Source: an uncultured Chlorobiaceae bacterium
Lineage (GTDB): Bacteria; Bacteroidota; Chlorobiia; Chlorobiales; Chlorobiaceae
Assembly (NCBI GenBank): GCA_903866255.1
Contig: CAIPMW010000046.1
Coordinates: forward strand, 1 to 64,000
DNA: 64,000 nucleotides
Reading direction: 5' to 3'
In this document: piece by piece, positions 45,316 through 62,098 of the stretch
Layout: each line of letters opens with the position of its first letter
Numbering within the stretch: position 1 is the first letter of the stretch
Notes under the pieces: model-generated
What the model saw: the letters and a program-made list of their open reading frames with translations, nothing else
The model's database searches: none
Told to the model about the DNA's origin: nothing
Program-made: the position numbers and the translations under genes

Positions 45316-45629
45316 CCTGGTCTCTCCAGTTTCTTCCTGAAGTAGAGGACGATGTCATAAAAAGTTATAGCTGGTACAAAACAAAATCAAGAGCACTTGT
45401 GGAGGATTTCCTTCGTATTTTTTATGCTTCTGCGCAGGATCTTCCAGGGAATTCATTGCTCTATCCAAAAGTTTATAAGGAATTTCGGCGACGGCTGATC
45501 AGACGATTTCCCTATGCGATCTATTTTGCATGAGATGATGATCGGATCATTGTCTTCGGGCTATTTCATTGTGCACGTAACCCTCGATGGCACTTCAAAA
45601 CAGAGAGAAAGAATAATCTCCTTGCCTAA
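45312..45629 (+). pseudogene. ParE/RelE-type toxin with one in-frame TGA
   Basis: From the ATG at 45312 the frame gives MTWSLQFLPEVEDDVIKSYS and RRLIRRFPYAIYFA, then TGA at 45531-45533, and continues in the same frame as DDDRIIVFGLFHCARNP then RWHFK to TAA at 45627. The downstream part is exactly the missing last strands of a ParE toxin, so the TGA is a nonsense change within an otherwise intact 105-codon gene. The shortened 73-aa product lacks the C-terminal catalytic-side strand. Confidence 0.8.
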
Positions 45630-45669
45630 CAATAAACCTTATAGTGAACACTGAAAATCACAACAAACC

Positions 45670-46098
45670 ATGATTATCAAACAGCTCTCGGTTTTTCTCG
45701 AAAACAGGACTGGCCGGCTGACCGAACTGACCGGTATTCTTGCCGCCAACGACATCAATATCTCGGCATTCAGTATTGCCGATACTGCCGACTACGGTAT
45801 TCTGCGCATGATTGTCGGACGGCCGGATGCGGCGGCAGAGATACTGCGCAAGGCGGGATTTGCCGTCAAAATTACTGATGTGGTCGGTATGATTATCCCC
45901 CACAGACCCGGCGGGCTGCACAAGGCGCTGCAGCTTATTTCCGACAATAACGTAGCCATTGACTACATGTACGCTTTCGCCTCTGGAGACTGTAAGGCCA
46001 CCGTGGTTATAAGAGCGGAATCGTTGCAGAAACTCATTGATGTCCTACAGGAGCACAAGATGGAACTGCTGCAGGAGGGGGATGTCTATCAGGTGTAA
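45670..46098 (+). CDS. Tandem ACT-domain protein
   Basis: A 142-aa protein made of two ACT domains (~1-68 and ~72-142): LSVFLENRTGRLTELTGILA and HRPGGLHKALQLISDNN carry the typical amino-acid-binding turns. Such stand-alone tandem ACT proteins are thought to sense amino acids or to accompany acyl-CoA ligases. Its GC and codon use look like the backbone, so it is probably a resident gene inside the island. Confidence 0.8.
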   Translation: MIIKQLSVFLENRTGRLTELTGILAANDINISAFSIADTADYGILRMIVGRPDAAAEILRKAGFAVKITDVVGMIIPHRPGGLHKALQLISDNNVAIDYMYAFASGDCKATVVIRAESLQKLIDVLQEHKMELLQEGDVYQV

Positions 46099-46157
46099 CC
46101 AATTACCAATATGTTGCTCCTACGGAGGCTTGTACTCCATTGCCCTGAAGGAGCCTT

Positions 46158-47381
46158 ATGCTGTTAGTGATAACAACAAATACAATCATGCCAAGATTTT
46201 CTAAAGCAGTTTCATCACTCCGCTCTTCCGAAATCAGGGATCTCATGACCCTGGCCTCAAGACCGGACATCATCTCCTTTGCGGGTGGAATGCCCGGCAA
46301 CGATCTCTTTCCCGTTCAGGCGATTGAGGATCTTTTCAAAGCGCTCGACATCAAAAAAAAGCGCATTGCATTTCAGTACGGCCCGACACCCGGCCTTCCC
46401 TCACTGCTTGAGTCACTGAGCGGCTTCCTCGAAAAAAAGGGGTTGCCGGTACACACGAACCGACTGCTCATCACCACCGGCTCACAACAGGGGCTCAATC
46501 TGCTTGGCAAAGCCTTTATTGATCCTCACGACCCTGTCCTTGTCGAAAATCCCTGCTTTATCGGAGCGCTTTCGGCTTTCCGCTCCTACGACGCTGAACT
46601 GAGAGGTGTCCCTGTTGACCGCGACGGTATTGTCATGGAGGCGCTGCAACGGGAGATCGACCAAAAAGAGAAGCCAAAATTTCTTTACGTCACCCCATAT
46701 TTCCACAACCCGGCAGGGCTGCTCTACAGTTCTGAACGCAAAGAGCAACTTATAACCGCGCTTCAGGGGCGCGATATCCCGCTGATTGAGGATGATGCCT
46801 ACGGCGACCTCTACTTTTACGAAGAAGATCGGGAGCAACTCAAGCCCATCAAGGCCATCAATCCTGAAGGAATTGAGATCTGCTCTACCGGCTCATTCTC
46901 CAAGATTCTCGGCCCCGGCCTGCGACTGGGCTGGATGCTGGTGCCCGAAGAGATCTACCAGAAGTGCGAACTGATCAAGCAGTCTGCCGATGCCTGTTCG
47001 CCGAGCTTCACCCAGGTACTGGCTGACGAATTCATCCGCTCCGGCCAGATTTACAGCTATATCGCCACTGTTCGGCAGGAGTACAAAAGAAGGGCAAACG
47101 CCATGGTTTCTGCTCTCAAGGAACACCTGCCAAACTACGTCCAGTGGAACGAACCACGAGGGGGCTTTTACCTCTGGCTCACCCTGCCGGAAGAGACCGA
47201 TGCTACGAAAATTGTGCAACTTGCCATCGAGGGCGGCGCGGTGTTTGTGATAGGAAAAACGTTCGATCCGGCAGGAACGCAAAACAATTCACTCCGCCTC
47301 TCCTATTGCAACAACACCCCGGAGCAGATCGCCGAGGGAATTCCAATTGTGGCGAGGGCTATACGGCAGGTGTGCGGATGA
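46158..47381 (+). CDS. PLP-dependent aminotransferase (MocR/2-aminoadipate type, class I/II)
   Basis: A 407-aa protein; AAGGAG sits 4 nt before the ATG at 46158, though MPRFSKAVSSLRSSEI from 46188 is the conserved start. It shows DIISFAGGMPGNDLFP, QYGPTPGLPSLLE, TTGSQQGLNLLGKAF, the aspartate in IEDDAYGDLYF and the PLP lysine in CSTGSFSKILGPGLRLGW. This group includes 2-aminoadipate and aromatic/branched-chain aminotransferases; the substrate is unknown. It lacks a GntR DNA-binding domain. Confidence 0.87.
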   Translation: MLLVITTNTIMPRFSKAVSSLRSSEIRDLMTLASRPDIISFAGGMPGNDLFPVQAIEDLFKALDIKKKRIAFQYGPTPGLPSLLESLSGFLEKKGLPVHTNRLLITTGSQQGLNLLGKAFIDPHDPVLVENPCFIGALSAFRSYDAELRGVPVDRDGIVMEALQREIDQKEKPKFLYVTPYFHNPAGLLYSSERKEQLITALQGRDIPLIEDDAYGDLYFYEEDREQLKPIKAINPEGIEICSTGSFSKILGPGLRLGWMLVPEEIYQKCELIKQSADACSPSFTQVLADEFIRSGQIYSYIATVRQEYKRRANAMVSALKEHLPNYVQWNEPRGGFYLWLTLPEETDATKIVQLAIEGGAVFVIGKTFDPAGTQNNSLRLSYCNNTPEQIAEGIPIVARAIRQVCG

Positions 47382-47491
47382 ACAGGAGATTTTGCGATCC
47401 GATCAACTATCACCACCCATAAGCCATAGTAAACAGTTTAGTACTGTGAAGATTGAATATCACCCTTGCGAAACAAGAATGCAGATAAGCA

Positions 47492-47782
47492 TCAAATACG
47501 ATCTTGCCAATATGAAGGGTTTCTGTGAGAATTAGCAAAAGCAACAACAAGAATCTCAGTTTCTCTCATTTGATAAATAATCCCGTAAGGAAAACGACGA
47601 AGCTTACATCGCCTGATTCTCGGGGAACATTGATGTCATGCTTGAGGATGCTTCATGATTCGATCAAGAGCATGAAGAGCTTTAACAAGAAACACCTTGC
47701 CCAAACCAGCAAGCTCATGGTTATAATAATCAATGGCATCATCAAGCTCTTTTTGGGCGACCACAAGCAAGCGAATATCCAT
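47492..47782 (-). pseudogene. ParE-type toxin with a Trp codon changed to TGA
   Basis: From the ATG at 47782 the frame reads MDIRLLVVAQKELDDAIDYY ... RIMKHPQA, then TGA at 47638-47636, and continues in frame as HQCSPRIRRCKLRRFPYGII through VAFANSHRNPSYWQDRI to a TGA at 47494-47492. Relatives have Trp after HPxA, so this looks like TGG to TGA. Apart from this codon the 96-codon toxin is intact. It follows its antitoxin by 5 bp. Confidence 0.8.
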
Positions 47783-47787
47783 TGCTG

Positions 47788-48006
47788 TCAGAGATTCTTA
47801 TACTTTTCAAGAACCTCTCCTAACGAGACTGACTGTAATTGCCCCTGTTCATACGCATCAATCCGGCTTTCCGATTCTGTTGTCCATAACTCATCAATTG
47901 TTTTATCGGGTGCATCAAGATGAGCAATCAGTTTATCAACAAGCACCGCCTGCTCTTGAGGTTTCAGAGCCAAAGCATACAGATAAATATCTTTTGCCGT
48001 AATCAT
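47788..48006 (-). CDS. Addiction-module antitoxin
   Basis: A 72-aa protein (MITAKDIYLYALALKPQEQ, VLVDKLIAHLDAPDKTIDEL, SRIDAYEQGQLQSVSLGEVL) of the short addiction-module antitoxin family, similar in size and layout to the one at 45.1 kb. The last part is the flexible toxin-binding tail. It is intact; the toxin behind it is interrupted. Confidence 0.82.
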   Translation of the reverse strand: MITAKDIYLYALALKPQEQAVLVDKLIAHLDAPDKTIDELWTTESESRIDAYEQGQLQSVSLGEVLEKYKNL

Positions 48007-48118
48007 TAAAAACCCCCTGTTATAAGAAGAGTTAACTGTAAATTGTACAACACCGTCTTTTGATTATAACAACAACTTCAGAAGAAGACAAATTTGCTGA
48101 TATAACTACTGATACCCC

Positions 48119-48609
48119 ATGGCATCAAGCACACATCAAGATCTCGCAGGATTTATATGGAACATCGCCAACAAGCTGAGGGGCCCATACCGTCCGCCGC
48201 AGTACCGTCACGTCATGCTGCCTATGACCATCCTCCGCCGCCTTGATCTGGTGCTTGAACCAACCAAAGAGCCGGTGCTTGCCGAACTGAAAAGACTGCA
48301 AGCCAAAGGGATGACCGGCCCGGCGCTCGAAGCTGCCCTCTCAAGAGTTGCCAACGGCGGCAACCGCAAACAGGCGCTCTACAACACCAGCCCCTTCACC
48401 TTCCAGAAGCTGCTTGGGGATGCTCCAAATATTGCCGACAACCTCATCTCCTACATCAGAGGCTTTTCGCCCCGTGTACGCGACATCTTCGAAAAATTCG
48501 AGTTTGAAAAAGAGATTGAAAAGCTTGACGACAGCAACCGACTCTTCCTCATTGTCAAAGAGTTCTGCAGCTCAGAAATCGATCTCTCCCCGGCCAAACT
48601 CTCAAACCT
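48119..48609 (+). repeat. hsdM: Long direct repeat A (5' hsdM), upstream copy
   Basis: 491 bp aligned without gaps to 54286-54776. I count 16 differences (96.7% identity), every one at a third codon position and synonymous. The repeat starts at or within a few bases of the ATG and ends at codon 163/164. Confidence 0.92.
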
Positions 48610-48667
48610 TAATATTATCAACTCGACAAACTATATTCTATCATGCTCGAACTTGTATTGGGAATAG
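48119..48667 (+). pseudogene. hsdM: hsdM 5' stub (type I DNA methyltransferase N-terminus)
   Basis: The first 163 residues (MASSTHQDLAGFIWNIANKL ... EIDLSPAKLSNL) are the helical N-terminal domain of type I HsdM and are identical in protein sequence to the start of the second hsdM at 54.3 kb. From 48610 the sequence changes abruptly to AT-rich DNA, adding 18 unrelated residues before a stop at 48667. The methyltransferase motifs are absent. The stop lies 25 nt inside the following cargo gene, so translation of the stub could couple to the cargo. Confidence 0.9.
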
Positions 48668-50793
48668 GAGCCCTAATTGGAGCTCTAATATGGCTTCTAA
48701 GTTGGATAGTATTTCCTGCATTTATGATTATCACAATTATTCAGACGGTAACGATTGTGAAAAATCGTTCACTTGACGCAACCAATAAAGTATCTGATCT
48801 ATCGGAGGATATTGCTACTTTTTATTTATTATCCAGCATAATCTTCTTCAGCACTATCACTACTAATTTTTCTGTTGGTTTCGAATGGATAACTATATCT
48901 AACATATTTATCTATATTTGGTTAATTATAATTGTTACGACAATACTATGGGCAATTGATTTTGCCGTGATAGTAGTACTTGACCGTATAAATACTGCTC
49001 TAAATTATATATTAATATTTCGTTCCTTTTTATGGCTTTTTATATTTGTACTCTCCTTTACAAAAGCGATTACTTTTCAAGACGTAATCTCAGAAATCAA
49101 TTACTCTTTTATACTTTACAATGTATGCGCAGCTATTATTATTATACTACATCTTGTTCTGCAGTTTCAGAGTAAAAACTACATAATCACATCAATTGTC
49201 ATATTAATAAATTGCTTTTTTCTTTGGCTTTTTTTTATATACTTTTTTGCTTTCAAAGCGTCATATCAAATCTTTTTGCTCTCAATGCTAATCGGCTATA
49301 TATTTTCAATTATCTTTTATGTCTATAATAAAAAGTATATAAAAGATATAATAAAAGATAAGGCTTTTTTCCTTATAACAAAAAGTATAAATTACAGCTC
49401 TGCTTATAATAAGCTCTTGATAAGCTTATTGGTTTTTGCTTCTATGTTAGTTTCAAGCCATATAATGATTATAAATAATTCACATAATTATTTATATCTA
49501 TTTTATTTCTTTTTTAATTCTACCTTAGCGATACTGCTTTCTATTTATTCAATACCCTTTGTGATAAAATACGCGAAAAATGCGCGCTATATTTCAAAAC
49601 TGAATAAAGAGAAATCAAAGTTACAAAGCGAACTTAAACAAATAGGACTTACTGTACTGATAAGGGATATGCAAGTCAAGGATGATGGGAAGATCAATTT
49701 TGAAAAAGCAATTATTGAACGGATAATTAAATCAAAGAATTCAAATGCCGCAGAGTTAATTTATAAAATAAGCTCTGAATTTCTTGTAATGATTAATCTT
49801 TATTTAGTAGACAAATTCATTTCCCAACCTTCGACAAAGCATTTAATTTATTTTGAACAAAACTATAATAACTTTTTAAGGGAATATATCCAAGAAACTA
49901 AATCAGACAAAAATTTGATCGATTATCTGTATTACAATAAATTACCAATAAACGATTTCCCCGATTATAAAATTAATCGCAAAACTGTCAGCAGTCTATT
50001 ACATAAATTATCAAATGAATATACATATTTAGATAATTATTATGATGTGGTTTTTCGCTTGTTATCAAACGCTCCTTACAAGGAGATTGCAATAGATCAA
50101 AATTACTTTCGGGACATAAAATCAATTATTGAAAATATCAAGCCAAGAAATGGAATAACAATCGAAGATTTAGATTCATTAAAAAATAAAGCAATTAAAA
50201 ACCATGATTATGATTTTTTAAAAAAAGCTTTATTTTTATATGAATTTGATCTACATACCAGCTTAATTGTTTTAAAACATTTAGGAACAAAAAAAGTATC
50301 TCCTCAATTAGTAGATAACTTCATTTATAAGATAAAACCTCTAATCAACGATTCGGAAATAAATTATGATTTCAATTTTTATCAAGATTATGCTTCTGAT
50401 AAATTAGAAAAATATAATATCACAATAAACAGAACAGAATTTATAACCTTTGCAGACGAACTCTGGCAATATATAAATAAAGAGATGCTTTCTGATGATT
50501 ATTTACGGCTTATTTCTGCACTCTTTGAAAATGATACACAATTCAAATATATTGAATTAATCACCGACCCCAACCACACCAAATTATCAATGAATACTGT
50601 GTTTGAAGTTTTGAAACATTTAAAAGGCGCAAATCAAACCGAAATAGAGGCACAAATTAAAGCGAGGATATTAGGATATCCACATATCACAACATTTTCC
50701 AAGCTAAAAAATCCAGCAGGTACTCCTCTGTCTACTTTAATACAAAGGGCAATGATCGAAACTAATTTCAATAACACAATGAATCAATTATGA
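48643..50793 (+). CDS. Large polytopic membrane protein of unknown family, first gene of the MoxR/VWA operon
   Basis: A 716-aa protein. Residues ~1-310 hold about nine or ten hydrophobic helices (for example MLELVLGIGALIGALIWLL and LFYFFFNSTLAILLSIYSIP). Residues ~320-350 form a charged coiled-coil-like segment (KLNKEKSKLQSELKQIG), and the last ~370 residues are soluble, helical and Lys/Asn/Ile rich. No enzyme motif was recognised. Base composition is far more AT-rich than the backbone, indicating recent acquisition. There is no ribosome site; the start lies within the hsdM stub frame. Its stop overlaps the MoxR gene start (ATGA). Confidence 0.8.
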   Translation: MLELVLGIGALIGALIWLLSWIVFPAFMIITIIQTVTIVKNRSLDATNKVSDLSEDIATFYLLSSIIFFSTITTNFSVGFEWITISNIFIYIWLIIIVTTILWAIDFAVIVVLDRINTALNYILIFRSFLWLFIFVLSFTKAITFQDVISEINYSFILYNVCAAIIIILHLVLQFQSKNYIITSIVILINCFFLWLFFIYFFAFKASYQIFLLSMLIGYIFSIIFYVYNKKYIKDIIKDKAFFLITKSINYSSAYNKLLISLLVFASMLVSSHIMIINNSHNYLYLFYFFFNSTLAILLSIYSIPFVIKYAKNARYISKLNKEKSKLQSELKQIGLTVLIRDMQVKDDGKINFEKAIIERIIKSKNSNAAELIYKISSEFLVMINLYLVDKFISQPSTKHLIYFEQNYNNFLREYIQETKSDKNLIDYLYYNKLPINDFPDYKINRKTVSSLLHKLSNEYTYLDNYYDVVFRLLSNAPYKEIAIDQNYFRDIKSIIENIKPRNGITIEDLDSLKNKAIKNHDYDFLKKALFLYEFDLHTSLIVLKHLGTKKVSPQLVDNFIYKIKPLINDSEINYDFNFYQDYASDKLEKYNITINRTEFITFADELWQYINKEMLSDDYLRLISALFENDTQFKYIELITDPNHTKLSMNTVFEVLKHLKGANQTEIEAQIKARILGYPHITTFSKLKNPAGTPLSTLIQRAMIETNFNNTMNQL

Positions 50794-52082
50794 GCGATAT
50801 ATTAGAACCAAGTATTTTGCAGATTTTAGGGAAAGTTCATAAAGTTATAAATGAACTTAATGAAATATTAATTGATAGAAAACGGATTATTGATTTGTCA
50901 ATTTTAGCACTAATTGCAAATGAAAATATCCTATTACTTGGCCCTCCTGGTACGGCTAAAAGTCTATTGGCAAGCGAGGTCTGCAAAAGAATTGAAAACG
51001 CAAAATATTTTCAAAGATTGTTAACAAAATTTTCAACAAATACAGAGTTACTCGTATCTGGACAAGAAATTCATAGAGAGACACTCAACGGTAATAGTGA
51101 AATAACCAGAATAAAAAATTCGCATAAAGGAATGCTACCAGAGTGCGAAATTGCTTTCCTGGATGAAGTATTCAAAGCAAATTCGGCAATTCTAAATGCG
51201 TTACTCACGTTAATAAACGAACGTGTGTACTACACAAATGATGGAAAAGAGATAAAATCAAGTTTAATTAGTGTTTTTGGGGCGAGTAATGAGCGCCCCA
51301 AACCCGAAGAAGGATTAGAAGCATTATATGATAGATTCCTTATCAGGTATTACATCGGTTACCTGCAAGACAGAGACGATTTTATAAAAATGCTTAGTTT
51401 AGAAAAAAATAATAATACAAAAATTACAAAAATTACAATTAACGACATCTATACTTTAAATGGATACTTGGACAAGATTGAGATTCCAAACGATATCCTA
51501 GAAACAATATACAGAAAAAAAGAAATATTAAAGAAATCACAGGAATTGAAACTTATAAATCCTTCAGACAGAAGGTGGAGAAATTCATTAAAAATACTTA
51601 GGGCACACGCATTACTGAAAGGCAGAGGCGCTGTAATAACTACTGACATAATGGAAACTTTTCCTTACATTCTATGGGATACTCAACCAGGGATGTCGAC
51701 AAATCTTAATTATGATAAATTAGAAGAATTGGAAATGTTTTTCAGGAAAAGTGTTAGCTTAAATCTAGATGAAATGATGAAGAATTTAGAAAAACTGAAA
51801 ACGAAACTCAAGGAACTACAACATACTGAAGAGACAATTCGGCAAGAAATACATTCAAATCAGCCTGACAAGTATGAAAAAAATATTAATGACTATGACC
51901 TTGAAGGGACAAAGTTTATTGCTCAGGTTGAAGAGTATAAAAAGCGGGCAGAGGATTTCAATCCAGACACTTTACCATTAGGTGAACAGGAATGGTTAAA
52001 AGGATTTGGCCTTCAAACCGAAAAATTTAAAACCCATGTAAAAAATAAAATAAGAGAGCACAATGATTACTTAATGCAATAA
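50790..52082 (+). CDS. RavA-like MoxR-family AAA+ ATPase
   Basis: A 430-aa protein. Walker A is ILLLGPPGTAKSLLASEV, Walker B EIAFLDEVFKANSAILNALL, sensor 1 lies in VFGASNERPKPEEG, and the arginine-finger region is ALYDRFLIRYY. The RLLTKFSTNTELLVSGQEI and IFLDE-FKANSAILN motifs are those of the RavA branch of MoxR proteins. The C-terminus (~320-430) is coiled coil plus a small domain ending LGEQEWLKGFGLQTEKF. MoxR ATPases act as chaperone-like motors with VWA partners; here the partner is the next gene, 13 bp downstream. Confidence 0.9.
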   Translation: MSDILEPSILQILGKVHKVINELNEILIDRKRIIDLSILALIANENILLLGPPGTAKSLLASEVCKRIENAKYFQRLLTKFSTNTELLVSGQEIHRETLNGNSEITRIKNSHKGMLPECEIAFLDEVFKANSAILNALLTLINERVYYTNDGKEIKSSLISVFGASNERPKPEEGLEALYDRFLIRYYIGYLQDRDDFIKMLSLEKNNNTKITKITINDIYTLNGYLDKIEIPNDILETIYRKKEILKKSQELKLINPSDRRWRNSLKILRAHALLKGRGAVITTDIMETFPYILWDTQPGMSTNLNYDKLEELEMFFRKSVSLNLDEMMKNLEKLKTKLKELQHTEETIRQEIHSNQPDKYEKNINDYDLEGTKFIAQVEEYKKRAEDFNPDTLPLGEQEWLKGFGLQTEKFKTHVKNKIREHNDYLMQ

Positions 52083-52095
52083 AATTTATATCTAT

Positions 52096-53682
52096 ATGAA
52101 CAAGTCAATACTGCACTTTCAACTAAAAAACACAATTTCATATAAAAACGACTTTGAAATTAAGCTATTACTACAAGACAATAACAATTCCAAGGAATAT
52201 GACAGGATTAAAAATTTACCGCAAAACCTTTTAATAAATACTTTTGATGAACTATCAAGTGATATCTTCTATTCATTTTATAATAAAAAAGTAGAACTAC
52301 TACAAGCTGAATACGTGCAACTCAAATTTTTATTAAATCATCTTATCATGGATAATTTTATCAAGCAAGATGACTATAAGAAATTTCGAGAAGGGCAATA
52401 TAAAACTATCTATAACGACGAAGCAAGCTTTGAAGCAGTTCTAATTTCCATTCAAAAAATAATTAAATATTTGGACCGATATCTATCTGATGATAGTAAG
52501 AATGAAATTAATGACGTTTCTGATGAAATTAACCAAATTGACAAGAAGGAAAATCACCTTAATGAATTAAAAAAGAAAGGTCAATTATCTGGGCTCGATC
52601 AAAAAGAATTTGAAAAACTTAATCAAGAAATTATAAAATCAAAACTCGCTCTAAAAAATAAAATTCAAGAAATATCCTCAACATTGAAAGGGACAATTGC
52701 TCAATCCATACAAAAAGGCCTTTCAGAAGCCAAATCTGATATAGACGATTCTAAAAAAGAATTACAAAAAGTCTTAGGGGGATTTAACCAAGGATTTGAA
52801 CAAGGTGAGTTACAGAAATTGCCAATTCACAAAAGGATTGAATTAGCAAAGTTACTCTCATCCAACAAAAAAATTATGGAGATCGCAGAAATATTAGGTC
52901 GTTTTAATATAATAGCAGAACAAAAGCAAATTGAAAAAAAATCGAACCTAAAAATTGAAGTATCTGACATAACTAAAGGCAATGACTTGGAAAAGGTTAC
53001 ACCTGATGAGTTTTCAAATTTAAGTAATCCACATACTCGAGATGACTTCAATGTTAGATGGGCTTCAGGAGAATTGCTTACATTTGAACGAAAGCCAGAA
53101 ACTGATAAAGAAAATATAGGAAAAGGGAGTGTTATAATTTGCGTTGACACAAGTGGATCTATGGCAGGGATAAAAGAACTAAAAGCTAAAGGACTGGCTT
53201 TGTCTGTTGCTCAAATTACGTATCAACAAAAACGAAATTTTGCATGCATATTATTTAGCTCTTCACACAATAATTTAATAGTTGATATAATTAGTCAATC
53301 TGATAGCCCTGCCAGCATTGCAGAAAAAGTTATTAATATAGCAACGAGTTTTATTGGAGGAGGCACTGATTTTGAATCTCCTTTAAATAAAGCAATCAGC
53401 ATCATTGAACAAGATGAATTTAATAATGCTGATATTCTATTTTTAACCGATGGTTATGCAAATATTTCCGAACCCTTTCTATCAAAATACAATGATCTCA
53501 AAGGTAAAAAAAAGTTTAAAACAATAGGATTGCTTGTAGATGCCAATGATGCTGACAGATATTCGGTTAGAGATGTTATGCATAAATTCTGTGATGATAT
53601 TAAATACAATCAAGATATCGAAAAAGATTTAGATTTTTCACAAGCCGATGAATTCGTAAATGATATTTTTTTAAAAATTTAG
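52096..53682 (+). CDS. ViaA-like VWA-domain protein
   Basis: A 528-aa protein. The N-terminal ~300 residues are helical with a coiled coil at ~145-215 (NQIDKKENHLNELKKKGQLS). The C-terminal VWA domain (~345-528) has a complete MIDAS: IICVDTSGSMAGIKELKAKG, the Thr in FIGGGTDFESPL and the Asp in ILFLTDGYANIS. The block WASGELLTFERKPET before the domain and the VWA itself resemble ViaA, the partner of RavA. It ends the three-gene AT-rich operon. Confidence 0.88.
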   Translation: MNKSILHFQLKNTISYKNDFEIKLLLQDNNNSKEYDRIKNLPQNLLINTFDELSSDIFYSFYNKKVELLQAEYVQLKFLLNHLIMDNFIKQDDYKKFREGQYKTIYNDEASFEAVLISIQKIIKYLDRYLSDDSKNEINDVSDEINQIDKKENHLNELKKKGQLSGLDQKEFEKLNQEIIKSKLALKNKIQEISSTLKGTIAQSIQKGLSEAKSDIDDSKKELQKVLGGFNQGFEQGELQKLPIHKRIELAKLLSSNKKIMEIAEILGRFNIIAEQKQIEKKSNLKIEVSDITKGNDLEKVTPDEFSNLSNPHTRDDFNVRWASGELLTFERKPETDKENIGKGSVIICVDTSGSMAGIKELKAKGLALSVAQITYQQKRNFACILFSSSHNNLIVDIISQSDSPASIAEKVINIATSFIGGGTDFESPLNKAISIIEQDEFNNADILFLTDGYANISEPFLSKYNDLKGKKKFKTIGLLVDANDADRYSVRDVMHKFCDDIKYNQDIEKDLDFSQADEFVNDIFLKI

Positions 53683-53699
53683 GTATCAGGTTTAGGGAA

Positions 53700-53734
53700 G
53701 TTGCATACATATAAATAATTAATGTATACGCAAC
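53700..53734 (+). terminator. Imperfect hairpin after the MoxR/VWA operon
   Basis: GTTGC-ATACAT (53700-53710) pairs with ATGTAT-(AC)-GCAAC (53722-53734) with a 2-nt bulge and an 11-nt AT loop, 18 bp after the VWA stop. The T run comes only about 10 nt later, so termination is plausible but not certain. Confidence 0.35.
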
Positions 53735-53815
53735 AATAGATGCGTTTTTGCCCAGTCACGGTATTGAAGGAAAAATCTTATTGGGCACGACACAGGATAA
53801 AGATTTGCACACTCT

Positions 53816-54064
53816 ATGATGGTAGAAAATCTTTTCGCTCTCGGATTAAACGCACCTTTAATTGTGCTGGTCGGCTTTATCTCGCCATTTACAAGTTATC
53901 GTGAAATGGTGCACAGCCTCTTTTCCGTAAGGGAATTTTTGGAGGTATTCGTCAATACGCCACTGGACGGTTCCTACAAGGCACCGCTTACCCCTGAGAT
54001 TCATCTTTCAGGCACAATGGCATCCCCGGGTTTGATACTGAACTTGTTGACTTTGCGAAATTGA
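53816..54064 (+). pseudogene. Adenylylsulfate kinase (CysC) remnant with internal deletion
   Basis: The frame reads VGFISPFTSYREMVHSLFSV then REFLEVFVNTPL, matching the middle of APS kinase (AFISPFRADREMAR...EFIEVFVDTPL). It then jumps to KAPLTPEIHL, matching the later SPYEAPxNPEIHL of the same enzyme. About 30 residues (the RDPKGLYKKARAGEI region) are missing, as is the whole N-terminus with the P-loop. It is a relic trapped between the cargo operon and the second hsdM copy. Confidence 0.65.
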
Positions 54065-54285
54065 TTTTCACCTCGTCCCGAAAAGAGAGCCCGCCTTTGC
54101 CTGCCAGTTACACAAGAAAAGGTAGAAAAGGCGTTAATCCATTCCCCTTTTCTGAAGAAAAGCCGATAACTGGTTTCTTCAAAAGCAAAAAAGGCGTTCT
54201 TTCTCGAATACCTTGAATTTTCAACTCCTGAAAGCCGATGAAAAAAAAGAGGCGCATCAATAACACCAAGAAGTACCCCAATACC

Positions 54286-54776
54286 ATGGCATCAAGCACT
54301 CATCAAGATCTCGCAGGATTTATATGGAACATCGCCAACAAGCTGAGGGGGCCATACCGTCCGCCGCAGTACCGACACGTCATGCTGCCCATGACCATCC
54401 TCCGCCGCCTTGATCTGGTGCTTGAACCAACCAAAGAGCCGGTGCTTGCCGAACTGAAAAGACTGCAAGCCAAAGGAATGACCGGCCCGGCGCTCGAAGC
54501 AGCCCTCTCAAGAGTTGCCAACGGCGGCAACCGCAAACAGGCGCTCTACAACACCAGCCCCTTCACCTTCCAGAAGCTGCTTGGGGATGCTCCCAATATT
54601 GCCGACAACCTTATCTCCTACATCAGAGGCTTTTCGCCTCGTGTACGCGACATCTTCGAGAAATTCGAGTTTGAAAAAGAGATTGAAAAACTTGACGACA
54701 GCAACCGCCTCTTTCTCATTGTCAAGGAGTTTTGCAGCTCAGAAATCGATCTCTCCCCGGCCAAACTCTCGAACCT
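54286..54776 (+). repeat. hsdM: Long direct repeat A (5' hsdM), downstream copy
   Basis: Second copy of the 491-bp repeat at 48119-48609, same orientation, 5.7 kb of cargo and debris apart. Homologous recombination between the copies would remove the MoxR/VWA operon precisely and rebuild one hsdM 5' end. Confidence 0.92.
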
Positions 54777-55053
54777 CCAGATGGGCTATCTCTTTGAGGA
54801 GTTGGTCAGGAAATTCAACGAACAGGCGAACGAGGAGGCCGGAGACCACTTCACCCCGCGCGAAGTTATCCGGCTCATGGTTGAACTGATGTTTATCTAC
54901 GAAAATGAGGTCTTCAAGGCCGGAAAATACAGCTCCATCTACGACCCGACAGCCGGAACCGGTGGAATGCTCTCCGTTGCTGAAGAGTACATCAAACGAA
55001 CAAACAAACATCACCCCTTATTGCCGGAAAAGGGAGTGTTCTGGCAGACCTGA
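54286..55053 (+). pseudogene. hsdM: hsdM, second copy, truncated after motif I
   Basis: 255 aa from the ATG at 54286. Residues 1-163 equal the upstream stub. It continues correctly as MGYLFEELVRKFNEQANEEA, GDHFTPREVIRLMVELM and the SAM motif DPTAGTGGMLSVAEEYI. After KRTNKH it loses homology and stops at 55053; the catalytic NPPF motif and C-terminus (normal length ~500+) are missing, and no hsdS follows. The break runs into a vapBC relic, so this methyltransferase is inactive. Confidence 0.88.
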
Positions 55054-57117: not shown

Positions 57118-57392
57118 GTTTGGCCATTTTTTTATTTATGCTATTGCCTCCGATCACGAGATTAAGCTTTCCAGGCTCCTCTCCCTGTACAGAAGAAAGT
57201 GGGCCGAAATTCTTTATATCAAATGACTTGATCATTGGACTTGACTTGTTGCTATCATTTTCAGAGACCCGTTCTCTGAAAAATTCTTTTTTTACTTGTA
57301 AAATATAAGACGATCTTGAAAGAGAACTATCAACTTTTACAGAAAAGAACCAAATCCGGCCAAAACATCAACCCTGTTCACCCTCTGCAACC

Positions 57393-57578
57393 ATGCACAA
57401 GGAATCAAACTTCGAGCACTCCATAGAGCAATCGCTGCTCCAGCATGGCGGCTACAGCAAGGGCGACCCGCTGGCGTACGACATGAAGCTGGCGCTCTTT
57501 CCGGGTGAAGTTGTGGCCTTCGTTCAGGATACCCAACCTGAGTTCCGGGAGCGTTTCTCTGCGCTGAACAATAACGGA
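57393..57578 (+). repeat. hsdR: Direct repeat B (5' hsdR), upstream copy
   Basis: About 186 bp, ~91% identical to 59072-59254 with one codon (AAC) inserted near its end. It begins at the ATG in both copies and ends in AATAACGGA. Confidence 0.85.
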
Positions 57579-57590
57579 TTCTTGCCATGA
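57393..57590 (+). pseudogene. hsdR: hsdR 5' stub
   Basis: A 65-aa frame beginning MHKESNFEHSIEQSLLQHGG, the same N-terminus as the full hsdR at 59072. After FSALNNNG it diverges (FLP, stop). The TGA at 57588-57590 overlaps the ATG of the AlbA_2-type gene (ATGA), giving translational coupling. Compared with the full gene I count 16 nucleotide differences in the first 58 codons and six amino-acid changes, so the stub comes from a different allele or has drifted. Confidence 0.88.
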
Positions 57591-59032
57591 ACCTTTTACA
57601 ATTAATAGATTTGGCTGCTTCAGGAGAGGATGGCTCCCGGCAGTTCAAGTCGGATATTCGGAACGCTGAATCTCTGGCATCAGAAATGGCAGCCTTTGCC
57701 AATGCTGAAGGAGGAATCATTCTCATTGGCGTTGCTGACAATGGCTCCATACCGGGTCTTGAAAGCATTGATGTTTCGCGCATCAACCAGCTTATCAGCA
57801 ATGCCGCCAGCAATCTGGTACGTAGTCCGCTTACGGTACAGACTGAAAATATTCTGCTTGAAAATCGAAATGTTGTCATTGTTCTTACCGTACCCAAAGG
57901 AATCGATAAACCCTATTTCGATAAAAACGGTGTTATCTGGCTCAAATGTGGTGCTGACAAGCGACGAGTCAATACAAAGGAAGAGTTACGACGACTGTTT
58001 CAGATATCCAATCAGTTTCACGCTGATGAACTTCCAGCAAAAGCAGGTATTGACGCTCTTGATAAGCTTCGTTTCAGGGATTTTCTTAAAAAGACCTATC
58101 AACTGGACTATCCCGAGACCAATGAAGAGCTGAAAAAGCTTCTGCAAAATATGAATCTGGCTACCGACACTGGAGCACTGAATCTTGCTTGCGTCCTTTT
58201 GTTCGCCGAAAGACCAGAATGGATCGTACCACAATTTGTTGTGAAGACGGTTCGCTTTCCGGGTAATGAAATCCATCAAAGCGAGTATCTGGATATGGAG
58301 GATTTTACCGGAGCTTTAGGAGCCATTTTTGAGGGAGCGATGGCCTTTTTGATGCGAAATATGCACAAGGTGCAGGCCGGGCGGGGAATTAATGCGCCCG
58401 GAACCCCTGAAATTCCGCCGATTGTCTTTGAAGAGCTACTGGTTAATGCCCTGATGCACCGCGATTATTTTGTAAGCGCCCCAATCAGACTGTTTTTATT
58501 CGATAACCGAATTGAAATTATCAGTCCGGGACACCTGCCCAACAACCTGACTGTCGCCAAAATCAAAACAGGTAATTCCAATATCCGTAATCCGATTCTG
58601 GTCTCCTATGTCGCAAAAGGGCTGTTACCCTACCGGGGGCTTGGTTCTGGAATCAAACGGGCAATTGATGCATGGCCAAACATTGACTTTATCGATGATC
58701 ATGATGGTTGCTTGTTTACCGCCATTGTTCACCACAATAAAATTGGAGGTTCGGTAGAAAGTTCGGTAGAAAGTTCGGTAGAAAGCTCGACAGAAGGTTT
58801 GGTAGAAGGTTTTGTAGAAAACCCAATAGATGGTTCGGTAGAAAGTTCGGTAGAAATCGATAATCCTGTTCTCGAACAGTTCAGACTTAATCCTGAACTG
58901 ACTCTTCATGCTTTGGCAAAAACACTGGATATATCATTGAGAGCAACTGAAAAAAGGGTGGCCAACTTGCAGGAAAAAAATAAATTAAAACATGTCGGGC
59001 CGAAAAAAGGCGGCTACTGGCAGGTGCTTTAA
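57587..59032 (+). CDS. AlbA_2/Schlafen-type ATP-binding regulator (COG2865 type)
   Basis: A 481-aa protein. The N-terminal AlbA_2 domain (~10-120) has SRQFKSDIRNAESLASEMAA, FANAEGGIILIGVADNG and KPYFDKNGVIWLKCGADKR. The middle region (~270-380) has a GHKL-like ATPase part with ELLVNALMHRDYFVSAPIRL, FDNRIEIISPGHLPNN and LPYRGLGSGIKRAID. A repeated SVES linker (~388-425) joins a C-terminal winged helix (LHALAKTLDISLRATEKRV). Such proteins are frequent in type I R-M operons. It is the cargo between the two hsdR 5' copies. Confidence 0.85.
   Translation: MNLLQLIDLAASGEDGSRQFKSDIRNAESLASEMAAFANAEGGIILIGVADNGSIPGLESIDVSRINQLISNAASNLVRSPLTVQTENILLENRNVVIVLTVPKGIDKPYFDKNGVIWLKCGADKRRVNTKEELRRLFQISNQFHADELPAKAGIDALDKLRFRDFLKKTYQLDYPETNEELKKLLQNMNLATDTGALNLACVLLFAERPEWIVPQFVVKTVRFPGNEIHQSEYLDMEDFTGALGAIFEGAMAFLMRNMHKVQAGRGINAPGTPEIPPIVFEELLVNALMHRDYFVSAPIRLFLFDNRIEIISPGHLPNNLTVAKIKTGNSNIRNPILVSYVAKGLLPYRGLGSGIKRAIDAWPNIDFIDDHDGCLFTAIVHHNKIGGSVESSVESSVESSTEGLVEGFVENPIDGSVESSVEIDNPVLEQFRLNPELTLHALAKTLDISLRATEKRVANLQEKNKLKHVGPKKGGYWQVL
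58748..58859 (+). repeat. Degenerate 12-bp tandem repeat coding the SVES linker
   Basis: Units close to TCGGTAGAAAGT repeat in frame, giving SVES-SVES-SVES-STEG-LVEG-FVEN-PIDG-SVES-SVEI. The 12-bp period keeps the frame when copies are gained or lost, so the linker between the ATPase and winged-helix parts can change length. Repetitive linkers at this place are known in related proteins. Confidence 0.85.
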
Positions 59033-59071
59033 TGGTATACGCTTTCAAACATCTCAATCCACACACCCTTC

Positions 59072-59254
59072 ATGCACAAGGAATCAAACTTCGAGCAGTC
59101 GATAGAGCAATCCCTGCTGCAACATGGCGGCTACAGCAAGGGCGACCCGCTGGCGTACGACAAGAAGCTTGCGCTCTTTCCCGATGAAGTGGTGGCCTTC
59201 ATTCAGGATAGCCAACCGGAGTTCTGGGAGCGTTTCTCCGCACTGAATAACGGA
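59072..59254 (+). repeat. hsdR: Direct repeat B (5' hsdR), downstream copy
   Basis: The 5' end of the full-length hsdR, matching the stub at 57393-57578 (~91%). The 1.5 kb between the copies holds only the AlbA_2-type gene. Confidence 0.85.
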
Positions 59255-62098
59255 AATGCCAACGCTGTTCTGATCGAGAGTCTTGTGCGGGAGCTGCGAA
59301 CCAAGGGAATGCTCTCCATTTTGCGAAGCGGGTTCAAGTGTTTCGGCAAAACCGTGCGCATCGCCTTTTTTCAGCCAAATACCGGCATGGAGCCGCTTGC
59401 GCTCGAACGGTTCAGCAAAAACCGGCTGACCGTGATTCGTCAACTGGAAACAGAGAGTGGTGCCATCCCTGACATGGTGCTTGCGGTGAACGGCTTGCCT
59501 GTAGTGACAATAGAGTTGAAAAATCCCCTGACCGGGCAGAATGTGGTGCATGCCCAACAGCAGTACCGCGACCGCGATCCCAATGAGCTGCTCTTTGCCT
59601 TCAAGCAGCGCTGCCTTGTACATTTTGCGGTGGATACGGAAGAGGTCTGCATGACCACCAAGCTTGACCGGGGTGCGACTTCATTCCTTCCCTTCAACCG
59701 GGGAAACAACAACGCCAAAGGCAATCCGCCGGTTGAGGGTGATGTGCGCACAGCCTACCTGTGGAAAGAGGTGCTGGTGAAAGAGAGTCTGATGGATATT
59801 CTGGGCCGTTTTCTCCACCTGCAGGTTGAGGAGAAAACTGTTCCGACCGCCAAAGGGTTGAAGAAGCTTCGGCACGAAAGCATGATTTTCCCCCGCTACC
59901 ATCAGCTTGATGTGGTGCGCAAACTTGCCAACCATGCCCGGCAGTACCGCTCAGGGCACAACTACCTGATCCAGCACTCTGCCGGATCGGGAAAGTCGAA
60001 CTCCATTGCCTGGCTTGCCCACCGGCTTTCGACCCTGCACGATGCCCGGAACGAAAAAATCTTCCATTCGGTGGTCGTTATTACCGACCGGGTGGTGCTC
60101 GATCAGCAGTTGCAGGATACCATTTTCCAGTTCGAGCACAAGCAGTGTGTGGTGCAGAAGATTGACGAGAACACACAGCAACTGGCCAGAGCTTTGGCCG
60201 ATGGCGTACCGATCATCATTTCAACCATCCAGAAGTTTCCCTTTATCACACAGGCTCTTGCCACGCTTGAGAACAAGGGCCAGGGCATCGACATCTCCAC
60301 AGCAGGCAGACGCTTCGCCGTCATTGTTGATGAAGCGCACAGCTCACAGAGTGGCGAAACGGCCATGGAGCTGAAAAAGATTCTGAACCGCGAAGGGATT
60401 GAGTCGGCCATTGCCGAACAGATTCTCGACATGAACGACGAACCGCTCTCGGATTCGGCAAAGCGCTCCATGCTGCGTGATCAAATAAAGCGAACCAAAC
60501 AGCCGAACCTGAGCTTTTTCGCCTTTACGGCCACGCCGAAGTTCAAAACGCTTGCAATTTTTGACGAGCCCGGTGAAAACGGTGCCTCCCCGTTCCACCT
60601 CTACAGTATGCGTCAGGCCATTGAAGAGGGGTTCATTCTTGATGTGCTGGAAGGGTACACCTGCTACAAGCGATACTATCAGTTAATCCGGACGGTTGAG
60701 GACGATCCCGAGCTGCCGAGAAGAAAGGCCGCACGAGCGCTTGCCAGGTATGTTGATCTGCACGACTACAACATTACGCAGAAGGTTGAAATCATCGTTG
60801 AGCATTTCCGCACGCACACCCGCCACAAGATCGGCGGGCAGGCCAAAGCGATGGTGGTGACCGGCTCGCGTGAACATGCCGTGCGCTACAAAATGGCGTT
60901 CGACAGCTACCTGAAAGCGAAGAAATACCACGACATCAAAACTCTCGTTGCCTTTTCGGGTGAACTCTCTCTTGACGATCATCCCGGTATCAAGTTCACC
61001 GAAACACAGATGAACCACGGCATCAGGGAGAGTGAGCTGCCGGAGCGCTTTGCCTCCAATGAGTTTCAGGTGCTGCTGGTGGCTGAAAAGTACCAGACCG
61101 GCTTTGACCAGCCTCTGCTGCATACCATGTACGTCGATAAAAGGCTCGCTGGCATTCAGGCAGTGCAAACCCTCTCACGTCTGAACCGCACCTGCCCCGG
61201 CAAGGAGAACACCTTTGTGCTTGATTTTGTGAACGATCCGGAGGAGATCGGTCTCTCCTTCAAGCCCTATTACGAAACAACCCGGCAAGGCGAAGAGAGT
61301 GATCCGCAGCAGCTCAACGAACTGGCGCACAAGCTCGACCTGTGGAAGGTGTACGACCAGTCAGAGGTAAACGCGTGGTGCGAAATCTGGTTCAGCAACC
61401 GGATGCACCCGACCGGGGCTGAACATAAAAAGCTGAACAGTATCCTTGATGTCGTCGTTGAGCGGGTCAAAAAGCTTGAAGAGGAGGAGATTGATCTCTT
61501 CAAAAGCCAGTTCACCAGCTTTCTGAACCTCTACGGATTCCTGTCGCAGGTTATTCCCTATCAGGATTCCGGACTTGAAAAGCTCTACACCTTCGGGCGC
61601 TACCTGCTCTCAAAGCTTCCCCGAGACACCGGACGACATATCAGCATCGATGACGAGGTGCAGTTGAAATACTACCGGCTGGAGAAGTACAGCGAAGGAG
61701 CCATCTCATTGCGGGAGGGAGATGCGCCTCCATTGACTGGCCCGAAAGAGGTCGGCACCGGAAGCGCAGAGGAAGAGGTGCCACTCTCCACACTGGTTGA
61801 ACAGCTCAACGAACGATTCGGCACCGATTTCACCCCTGCCGATCAGCTCTTTTTCGAGCAGGTACAGGCAGCAGCCACAGAAAACGAAAAAATCCGGCAG
61901 GCGGCAGAGGCCAATACGCTCTCAAACTTTGAGCCGGTCTTCAACCAGCACCTCGAAACCCTGCTGCTCGACCGCATGAACGGCAACGAAGCCATCTTCA
62001 ACCGCATCATGAACGATGAAGCCTTCAAAAGCTTTATTGCGCAGAGGCTGATGCTCAACGTCTTCAAAAATCTCAACCAAATTATTTCAGCACCGTAA
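59072..62098 (+). CDS. hsdR: Type I restriction enzyme R subunit
   Basis: A full-length 1008-aa motor/nuclease. The PD-(D/E)xK nuclease is IPDMVLAVNGLPVVTIELKN (Asp, then ExK). The SF2 motor has Walker A IQHSAGSGKSNSIAWLAHRL, motif II VIVDEAHSSQSG, motif III FFAFTATPKFKT, and later motifs including EKYQTGFDQPLL and QAVQTLSRLNRTCPGK. The C-terminal helical region binds HsdM. It needs M and S subunits to act; the only hsdM here is broken and no hsdS is present, so it is likely an orphan unless complemented elsewhere. Confidence 0.93.
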   Translation: MHKESNFEQSIEQSLLQHGGYSKGDPLAYDKKLALFPDEVVAFIQDSQPEFWERFSALNNGNANAVLIESLVRELRTKGMLSILRSGFKCFGKTVRIAFFQPNTGMEPLALERFSKNRLTVIRQLETESGAIPDMVLAVNGLPVVTIELKNPLTGQNVVHAQQQYRDRDPNELLFAFKQRCLVHFAVDTEEVCMTTKLDRGATSFLPFNRGNNNAKGNPPVEGDVRTAYLWKEVLVKESLMDILGRFLHLQVEEKTVPTAKGLKKLRHESMIFPRYHQLDVVRKLANHARQYRSGHNYLIQHSAGSGKSNSIAWLAHRLSTLHDARNEKIFHSVVVITDRVVLDQQLQDTIFQFEHKQCVVQKIDENTQQLARALADGVPIIISTIQKFPFITQALATLENKGQGIDISTAGRRFAVIVDEAHSSQSGETAMELKKILNREGIESAIAEQILDMNDEPLSDSAKRSMLRDQIKRTKQPNLSFFAFTATPKFKTLAIFDEPGENGASPFHLYSMRQAIEEGFILDVLEGYTCYKRYYQLIRTVEDDPELPRRKAARALARYVDLHDYNITQKVEIIVEHFRTHTRHKIGGQAKAMVVTGSREHAVRYKMAFDSYLKAKKYHDIKTLVAFSGELSLDDHPGIKFTETQMNHGIRESELPERFASNEFQVLLVAEKYQTGFDQPLLHTMYVDKRLAGIQAVQTLSRLNRTCPGKENTFVLDFVNDPEEIGLSFKPYYETTRQGEESDPQQLNELAHKLDLWKVYDQSEVNAWCEIWFSNRMHPTGAEHKKLNSILDVVVERVKKLEEEEIDLFKSQFTSFLNLYGFLSQVIPYQDSGLEKLYTFGRYLLSKLPRDTGRHISIDDEVQLKYYRLEKYSEGAISLREGDAPPLTGPKEVGTGSAEEEVPLSTLVEQLNERFGTDFTPADQLFFEQVQAAATENEKIRQAAEANTLSNFEPVFNQHLETLLLDRMNGNEAIFNRIMNDEAFKSFIAQRLMLNVFKNLNQIISAP

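What the first reader, a model, noticed from the sequence alone, without database searches (positions are those of the whole stretch)
48643..53682. Three-gene system: polytopic membrane protein + RavA-like MoxR ATPase + ViaA-like VWA protein
The genes are tightly linked (ATGA overlap, then a 13-bp gap), share unusually low GC, and sit in an R-M/TA island. RavA-ViaA is a known chaperone-like pair with links to membranes. Here it has a dedicated ~10-helix membrane partner with a 400-residue cytosolic tail that I cannot assign to any family. A motor/VWA pair gating or remodelling a membrane effector would fit an anti-phage, abortive-type system, but that function is inference.
Basis: partly seen in the sequence, partly recalled or inferred. 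Interest (0 to 1): 0.85.

Follow-up and report, generated by a model that had tools for sequence, protein, structure and literature searches.

The report
Membrane protein with phage-type MoxR–VWA pair
A foreign-looking three-gene block, in which a membrane protein with no known relatives sits next to a protein-remodelling motor and its partner of a kind common in phages and plasmids, has landed inside a broken restriction-enzyme gene, and may be an undescribed bacterial conflict (possibly anti-phage) system, though no other genome searched carries the same trio.

Summary
Three intact co-directional genes (716, 430, 528 aa; ATGA overlap, 13-bp gap) share 27-31% GC (GC3 0.22-0.28, host genes 0.62-0.68). 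The MoxR has Walker A/B, sensor and arginine residues; the VWA protein has a complete MIDAS. "RavA-ViaA-like" is loose: both score far below the curated RavA/ViaA cut-offs, and the MoxR tree puts the window outside the RavA clade. Nearest relatives by sequence and fold are MoxR-VWA pairs of phages, plasmids and Bacillota. In 140 such loci no relative of the membrane protein occurs. The membrane protein is an orphan in every library and in about 1,000 genomes of its phylum, so the requested co-occurrence support is absent. New: the block lies inside hsdM of a type I R-M locus. The first 493 bp of hsdM flank it on both sides as two different alleles (16 differences, all synonymous); hsdM is truncated and hsdS gone. 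Relatives carry other AT-rich cargo, including an NB-ARC/TPR protein, in the same locus. Best reading: a horizontally acquired MoxR-VWA machine with a dedicated membrane client, probably a conflict system; mechanism inferred, one genome only.

The parts
48117..48609 (+). hsdM 5' end, copy A, in the native hsdM position; starts at the hsdM ATG. Its ORF (48119-48667, 182 aa, HsdM_N domain) runs out inside the first cassette gene
   Evidence: native upstream flank 45586-48116 is continuous with hsdM in genomes G280/G303
48610..54283 (.). insert between the two hsdM copies: the three AT-rich genes plus about 600 bp of decayed sequence
   Evidence: no match to related hsd loci except short fragments of the last 600 bp
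48643..50793 (+). orphan polytopic membrane protein, 716 aa, 8-9 TM segments then a 408-aa helical tail predicted cytosolic
50790..52082 (+). MoxR AAA+ ATPase, 430 aa: GPPGTAKS (51-58), FLDE (123-126), SN (166-167), DRF (181-183), SDRR (259-262); charged helical C-terminal extension
   Evidence: PF20030 bpMoxR 159 bits, phrog_19600 233 bits
52096..53682 (+). VWA protein, 528 aa: helical N-terminal part, VWA domain about 341-528 with complete MIDAS (DTSGS 351, T424, D452)
   Evidence: phrog_24053 over residues 47-508
53683..54283 (.). non-coding remnant between VWA gene and hsdM copy B; one frame reads like a decayed APS kinase (cysC) end
   Evidence: the cysC reading is by eye
54284..55005 (+). 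hsdM copy B, 720 bp of hsdM then broken (ORF 54238-55053, 271 aa against 733-740 aa in relatives)
57391..57571 (+). hsdR 5'-end fragment starting at the hsdR ATG, upstream of the Schlafen gene
   Evidence: also present in G280, G169, G264, absent in G217
57587..59032 (+). Schlafen/AlbA_2 gene of the hsd locus with a RecG-C-type domain
59072..62098 (+). intact hsdR, 1008 aa

Best explanation
The three genes are one operon acquired as a unit from an AT-rich donor (shown by shared composition and gene overlap). The MoxR ring is an ATP-driven remodelling motor and the VWA protein its MIDAS adaptor (inferred from intact motifs, family and fold). Their dedicated client is the co-encoded membrane protein, gripped through its 408-residue cytosolic tail, so that ATP hydrolysis assembles, gates or opens the membrane protein (inference). 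Because the block sits as cargo in a type I R-M locus that in related genomes carries other AT-rich cargo, including an NB-ARC/TPR protein, the most likely role is a conflict system against phages or plasmids, with the membrane protein as the effector that harms or alters the cell membrane (inference). Confidence in the operon with motor, adaptor and membrane client is about 0.7; in the conflict role about 0.45; the figure given is for the whole chain.
For: Operon anatomy and composition. Catalytic residues conserved. MoxR and VWA lie near each other on one strand in 127 of 140 relatives, so the pair acts together. The VWA model (pLDDT 83) matches phage VWA proteins over its full length, the Acidianus two-tailed virus ORF892 protein, and the VWA partner in the NorQD complex. 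Insertion into hsdM. Other AT-rich cargo in the same locus of relatives. Published MoxR-vWA ternary conflict systems pair the two with a variable third component (PMC7159879). RavA-ViaA act at the inner membrane (PMC9489729).
Against: One genome only; no relative of the membrane protein in any search, and none next to 140 relatives of the pair. No known effector or sensor domain. Close phage and plasmid kin of the pair suggest an ancestral role in phage or plasmid biology rather than host defence. The host R-M locus is itself broken, so co-location may reflect a dumping ground. Reads could not be inspected, so an assembly error at the hsdM repeats is not excluded.
Confidence: 0.4

Rival explanations
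1. A phage- or plasmid-derived module (for example membrane or tail assembly, or superinfection exclusion) that landed in the hsd locus and serves no host defence role; it may be decaying or selfish.
For: Closest MoxR-VWA kin are in viral contigs (61 loci), plasmids and phage records, PHROG families match best, full-length fold matches are viral, and the Acidianus two-tailed virus ORF892 is among the matches.
Against: No other phage or plasmid gene in the insert; the membrane protein is unknown in phages and plasmids; many relatives of the pair also sit in Bacillota genome contigs.
Confidence: 0.25
2. A chaperone/maturation set: MoxR and VWA fold or load a cofactor into the membrane protein, as NorQ-NorD or RavA-ViaA do for respiratory complexes, with a metabolic rather than conflict role.
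For: That is the established role of several MoxR-VWA pairs (PMC9976466 abstract; PMC9489729); the NorQD VWA partner is among the fold matches.
Against: No metabolic or respiratory gene in the block, no cofactor-binding family recognised in the membrane protein, and no match to the membrane protein in 98 genomes of the class.
Confidence: 0.2
3. The membrane gene and the MoxR-VWA pair are unrelated neighbours brought together by chance on an AT-rich fragment.
For: No second genome shows them together.
Against: 4-bp ATGA overlap, same strand, matching codon composition in all three.
Confidence: 0.1
4. Assembly chimera: the AT-rich block was joined to the hsd contig at the near-identical hsdM copies.
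For: 493-bp repeats of 97% identity on both sides; draft genome of 117 contigs.
Against: The junctions lie at the ends of the repeats next to unique sequence, the two copies are distinct alleles, and two other sets of hsd 5'-end fragments occur, one of them in related genomes too.
Confidence: 0.05

Closest known systems
Phage/plasmid MoxR-VWA pairs (phrog_19600 + phrog_24053; e.g. Moorella phage MTATph1, Brevibacillus and Alicyclobacillus plasmids)
   Same: Same two proteins in the same order; VWA aligned over most of its length (25-31% identity), MoxR up to 40-43%
   Different: They lack the membrane protein; 54 of 140 loci have DUF6744 nearby instead
RavA-ViaA
   Same: MoxR + VWA pair, AAA core of RavA matched to model position 334, membrane link reported for RavA-ViaA
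   Different: Scores far below curated cut-offs, C-terminal part of RavA (where the LARA domain lies, from general knowledge) unmatched, ViaA's arginine-rich C-terminal helix absent, tree places it outside the RavA clade
MoxR-vWA-centric ternary conflict systems (VMAP, iSTAND, FtsH, beta-propeller classes; Kaur et al. 2020, PMC7159879)
   Same: MoxR + vWA + one further component; MoxR matches PF20030 (bpMoxR); P-loop GXXXTAKS as reported for the FtsH and propeller classes
   Different: No VMAP, iSTAND, FtsH or propeller part; nothing follows the VWA domain; third component is an 8-9 TM orphan
NorQ-NorD
   Same: MoxR-VWA machine acting on a membrane protein complex
   Different: No nitric oxide reductase or cofactor target here
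Insertion with long target duplication in R-M loci (Nobusato et al. 2000, cited in PMC4978471)
   Same: Block in an R-M locus flanked by a long direct repeat of the target
   Different: The two copies are different alleles (16 of 16 differences synonymous), so recombination with a donor locus fits better than a fresh duplication

Membership tests
RavA-ViaA | MoxR passes the curated RavA model (NF010054, 681 bits) | tested here: not met
   188.9 bits, residues 12-344 against model 7-334 of 498
RavA-ViaA | VWA passes the curated ViaA model (NF008230, 500 bits) | tested here: not met
   84.3 bits, residues 234-477 only
RavA-ViaA | MoxR falls in the RavA clade | tested here: not met
   FastTree of 132 MoxR: gamma RavA group with Bacteroidota copies supported at 97, window outside it on a long branch; its own position is weakly supported
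RavA-ViaA | Arginine-rich C-terminal lipid-binding helix of ViaA (PMC9489729) | tested here: not met
   C-terminus is QDIEKDLDFSQADEFVNDIFLKI, no arginine
MoxR-vWA ternary systems, propeller class | MoxR matches bpMoxR (PF20030) | tested here: met
   159.4 bits against cut-off 27; how specific the model is against other RavA-like proteins was not tested
[quoted passage not shown]
   the VWA domain ends at the C-terminus, residues about 341-528
MoxR-vWA ternary systems, VMAP/iSTAND/FtsH classes | VMAP, inactive STAND or FtsH third component | tested here: not met
   no such gene in the insert; third gene matches no Pfam family even at E 10
Phage-type MoxR-VWA pair (phrog_19600/24053) | both proteins match the families over most of their length and are adjacent | tested here: met
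   1.2e-68 (residues 9-358) and 1.4e-56 (residues 47-508)
Known anti-phage defence system | match to PADLOC models of a described system | tested here: not met
   no match for genes 1 and 3; only generic AAA matches of about 17 bits or less for gene 2
Known anti-phage defence system | protects against phage | not testable with these tools
   needs an experiment

The most novel reading that the evidence does not exclude
A further class of MoxR-vWA ternary conflict system, in which a phage-lineage motor-adaptor pair drives a polytopic membrane effector through its cytosolic tail, carried as exchangeable cargo of type I R-M loci.
Probability: 0.25. Interest if true: 0.75.

Novelty: new variant of a known kind. 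Interest (0 to 1): 0.5.

Why it matters
If real, it would show a MoxR-VWA machine with an obvious genetic partner in the membrane, which makes the open question of what these machines act on testable in a three-gene system, and it would suggest that phage-type motor pairs are captured by host conflict loci. It also points to a type I R-M locus in this genus as a place where new conflict genes can be looked for.

Tried and rejected
Relatives of the membrane protein: genome contigs and viral contigs with exact peptide patterns (insensitive to distant kin), six-frame search of 394 phylum, 98 class, 335 and 235 further genomes, partly overlapping sets (only short, low-complexity or stop-ridden matches, E 0.008 to 8e-6, rejected), plasmids and phages by tblastn, Pfam to E 10 on both halves, PDB sequences. 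AlphaFold2 of the membrane protein alone gave pLDDT 41 and was not used for a fold search. Large (at least 400 aa, at least 5 TM) same-strand neighbours near the pair: only two, in Caryophanon; the one annotated is a glycerophosphodiester phosphodiesterase and the other looks like it; rejected. MoxR loci of other Bacteroidota-type genomes found with the MoxR profile are a different operon with 233-247, ~800 and ~570-aa partners; no similarity to our membrane protein. The PDB fold search was dominated by the VWA domain, so it does not test the N-terminal part. The idea that the hsdM repeat is a fresh target-site duplication was dropped because all 16 differences are synonymous and the divergence equals that between species. 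A search of genomes centred on other phyla was not possible with the tool.

Full report
What was claimed and what is there. The three genes exist as described: 48643-50793, 50790-52082 and 52096-53682, all on the + strand, with an ATGA overlap and a 13-bp gap. Shuffled sequence of the same composition never gave an ORF above 142 aa. GC falls to 27-31% over the block and third-position GC is 0.22-0.28 in all three genes against 0.62-0.68 in the native genes measured. They are therefore real, alike in composition, and foreign to this genome.

The membrane protein. Hydropathy gives 8-9 segments in the first 308 residues and then a 408-residue hydrophilic tail; the charge of loop 229-258 and of the tail places the tail in the cytosol (prediction). 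It matches no family in Pfam even at E 10, PADLOC, NCBIfam or the PDB, and nothing convincing in PHROGs. No relative was found in 98 genomes of the class, a sample of 394 genomes of the phylum, two further class samples of 335 and 235, or in plasmid and phage records. The pattern scans of 84,980 species genomes and of viral contigs were also empty, but these find close relatives only. A single-sequence AlphaFold2 model was poor (pLDDT 41) and says no more than that the protein is helical.

The MoxR-VWA pair. The MoxR has Walker A GPPGTAKS, Walker B FLDE, sensor SN, DRF and SDRR; the VWA has DTSGS, T424 and D452, mostly in columns conserved across relatives. NCBIfam sees RavA and ViaA only far below their cut-offs (188.9 against 681 bits; 84.3 against 500 bits), and RavA is matched to model position 334 of 498 only. 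The best models are phage families: phrog_19600 over residues 9-358 and phrog_24053 over residues 47-508. tblastn and pattern searches found relatives in plasmids, phage records, 61 viral contigs and 80 genome contigs, mostly Bacillota. In FastTree trees the gamma-proteobacterial RavA group clusters with Bacteroidota copies (97) and excludes the window, whose own place is on a long, weakly supported branch among phage, plasmid and genome copies. A good model of the VWA protein (pLDDT 83, 50 sequences) matches phage VWA proteins over the full length and the Acidianus two-tailed virus ORF892 protein, and in the PDB generic VWA domains and the NorQD complex.

Neighbourhoods of relatives. Among 140 loci with a VWA relative, 127 have a MoxR relative nearby on the same strand, 54 have DUF6744 nearby, none has a relative of the membrane protein, and only two have any large multi-TM neighbour on the same strand (the one annotated is a glycerophosphodiester phosphodiesterase). 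So the pair is common and mobile, and the trio is seen here only.

Where it sits. The block lies inside hsdM of a type I R-M locus. In related genomes hsdM is a single complete gene of 733-740 aa followed by hsdS, and in several a Schlafen/AlbA_2 gene and hsdR follow. In the window the native upstream flank runs straight into hsdM at 48117, hsdM stops matching at 48609, the block follows, and hsdM begins again at its start codon at 54284 and breaks after 720 bp; hsdS is absent and hsdR intact. The 493-bp copies differ at 16 positions, all synonymous third positions, and are nearly as far from each other as from other species' alleles (16 against 18-28 differences). That fits recombination between a resident hsdM and incoming DNA that carried its own hsdM allele behind the block, rather than a fresh duplication; this step is inference. 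A like fragment of the hsdR 5' end precedes the Schlafen gene in the window and in three relatives but not in a fourth, and a further set of hsdM fragments lies on another contig of the same genome. Insertion with long target duplication has been described for R-M loci (Nobusato et al. 2000, cited in PMC4978471).

The locus as a cargo site. In G169 the position between hsdS and the hsdR fragment holds an AT-rich ParA-like/NB-ARC/TPR protein of 955 aa; in G264 two AT-rich genes, one with five TM segments and one with DUF5677; in G280 AT-rich ORFs. This makes a conflict role for AT-rich cargo here plausible, no more.

How it most likely works. MoxR-VWA pairs are remodelling machines; published ternary conflict systems add a variable third component to the pair (PMC7159879), and RavA-ViaA act at the inner membrane (PMC9489729). 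The simplest model is that the membrane protein is the client: the VWA protein binds its cytosolic tail, and the MoxR ring uses ATP to assemble, gate or open it. Motor and adaptor identity rest on motifs, families and fold; partnership rests on operon structure; client recognition, gating and the anti-phage role are inference. Rivals are a phage or plasmid module with no host role, and a maturation set for a membrane protein.

Caveats. The genome is a draft in 117 contigs and reads were not available, so an assembly error is unlikely but not excluded. The first gene starts only 34 bp after the junction, without a clear ribosome-binding site, inside the end of the truncated hsdM ORF; its N-terminus could be shortened, or its translation may depend on the truncated hsdM. 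The promoter scan gave no more sites than shuffles.

Verdict. Observation confirmed; interpretation partly supported; at most a new variant of the MoxR-vWA-plus-third-component kind. Interest 0.5, because the partner is novel and testable but the system rests on one genome.

Noticed in passing
48117-48609 and 54284-54776: hsdM 5' end present twice around the block, starting at the start codon; 16 differences, all synonymous, so the two copies are different alleles
   Followed up: yes
57391-57571 and 59071-59250: hsdR 5' end present twice around a Schlafen/AlbA_2 gene; the same arrangement in G280, G169 and G264 but not G217; in the window the fragment's ORF ends by an ATGA overlap with the Schlafen start
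   Followed up: partly
L203 (G000:C52:5000-19150): Fragments of an hsdM-like gene (including its 5' end, 92-94% identity) lie upstream of an intact 875-aa copy, a further case of partial hsdM duplication in this genome
   Followed up: partly
L198:8700-13258 (G169): The same hsd locus carries an AT-rich ParA-like/NB-ARC/TPR protein of 955 aa and a 253-aa unknown: a candidate conflict gene
   Followed up: partly
L200:4894-6467 (G264): The same hsd locus carries AT-rich genes for a 289-aa protein with five TM segments and a DUF5677 protein
   Followed up: partly
L008, L009, L010, L011, L013 and many Bacillota loci: DUF6744 is a frequent neighbour (54 of 140 loci) of phage/plasmid-type MoxR-VWA pairs; function unknown
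   Followed up: partly
53683-54283: Decayed sequence with short matches to other genomes of the genus; one frame looks by eye like an APS kinase (cysC) remnant
   Followed up: partly
G000 genome: 15 HsdM_N matches in a 2.8-Mb genome, a large number of type I R-M methylase genes and fragments
   Followed up: no
58735-58867: 12-bp tandem repeats in the Schlafen gene encode a repeated SSVE-like peptide; the copy number may vary between strains
   Followed up: no
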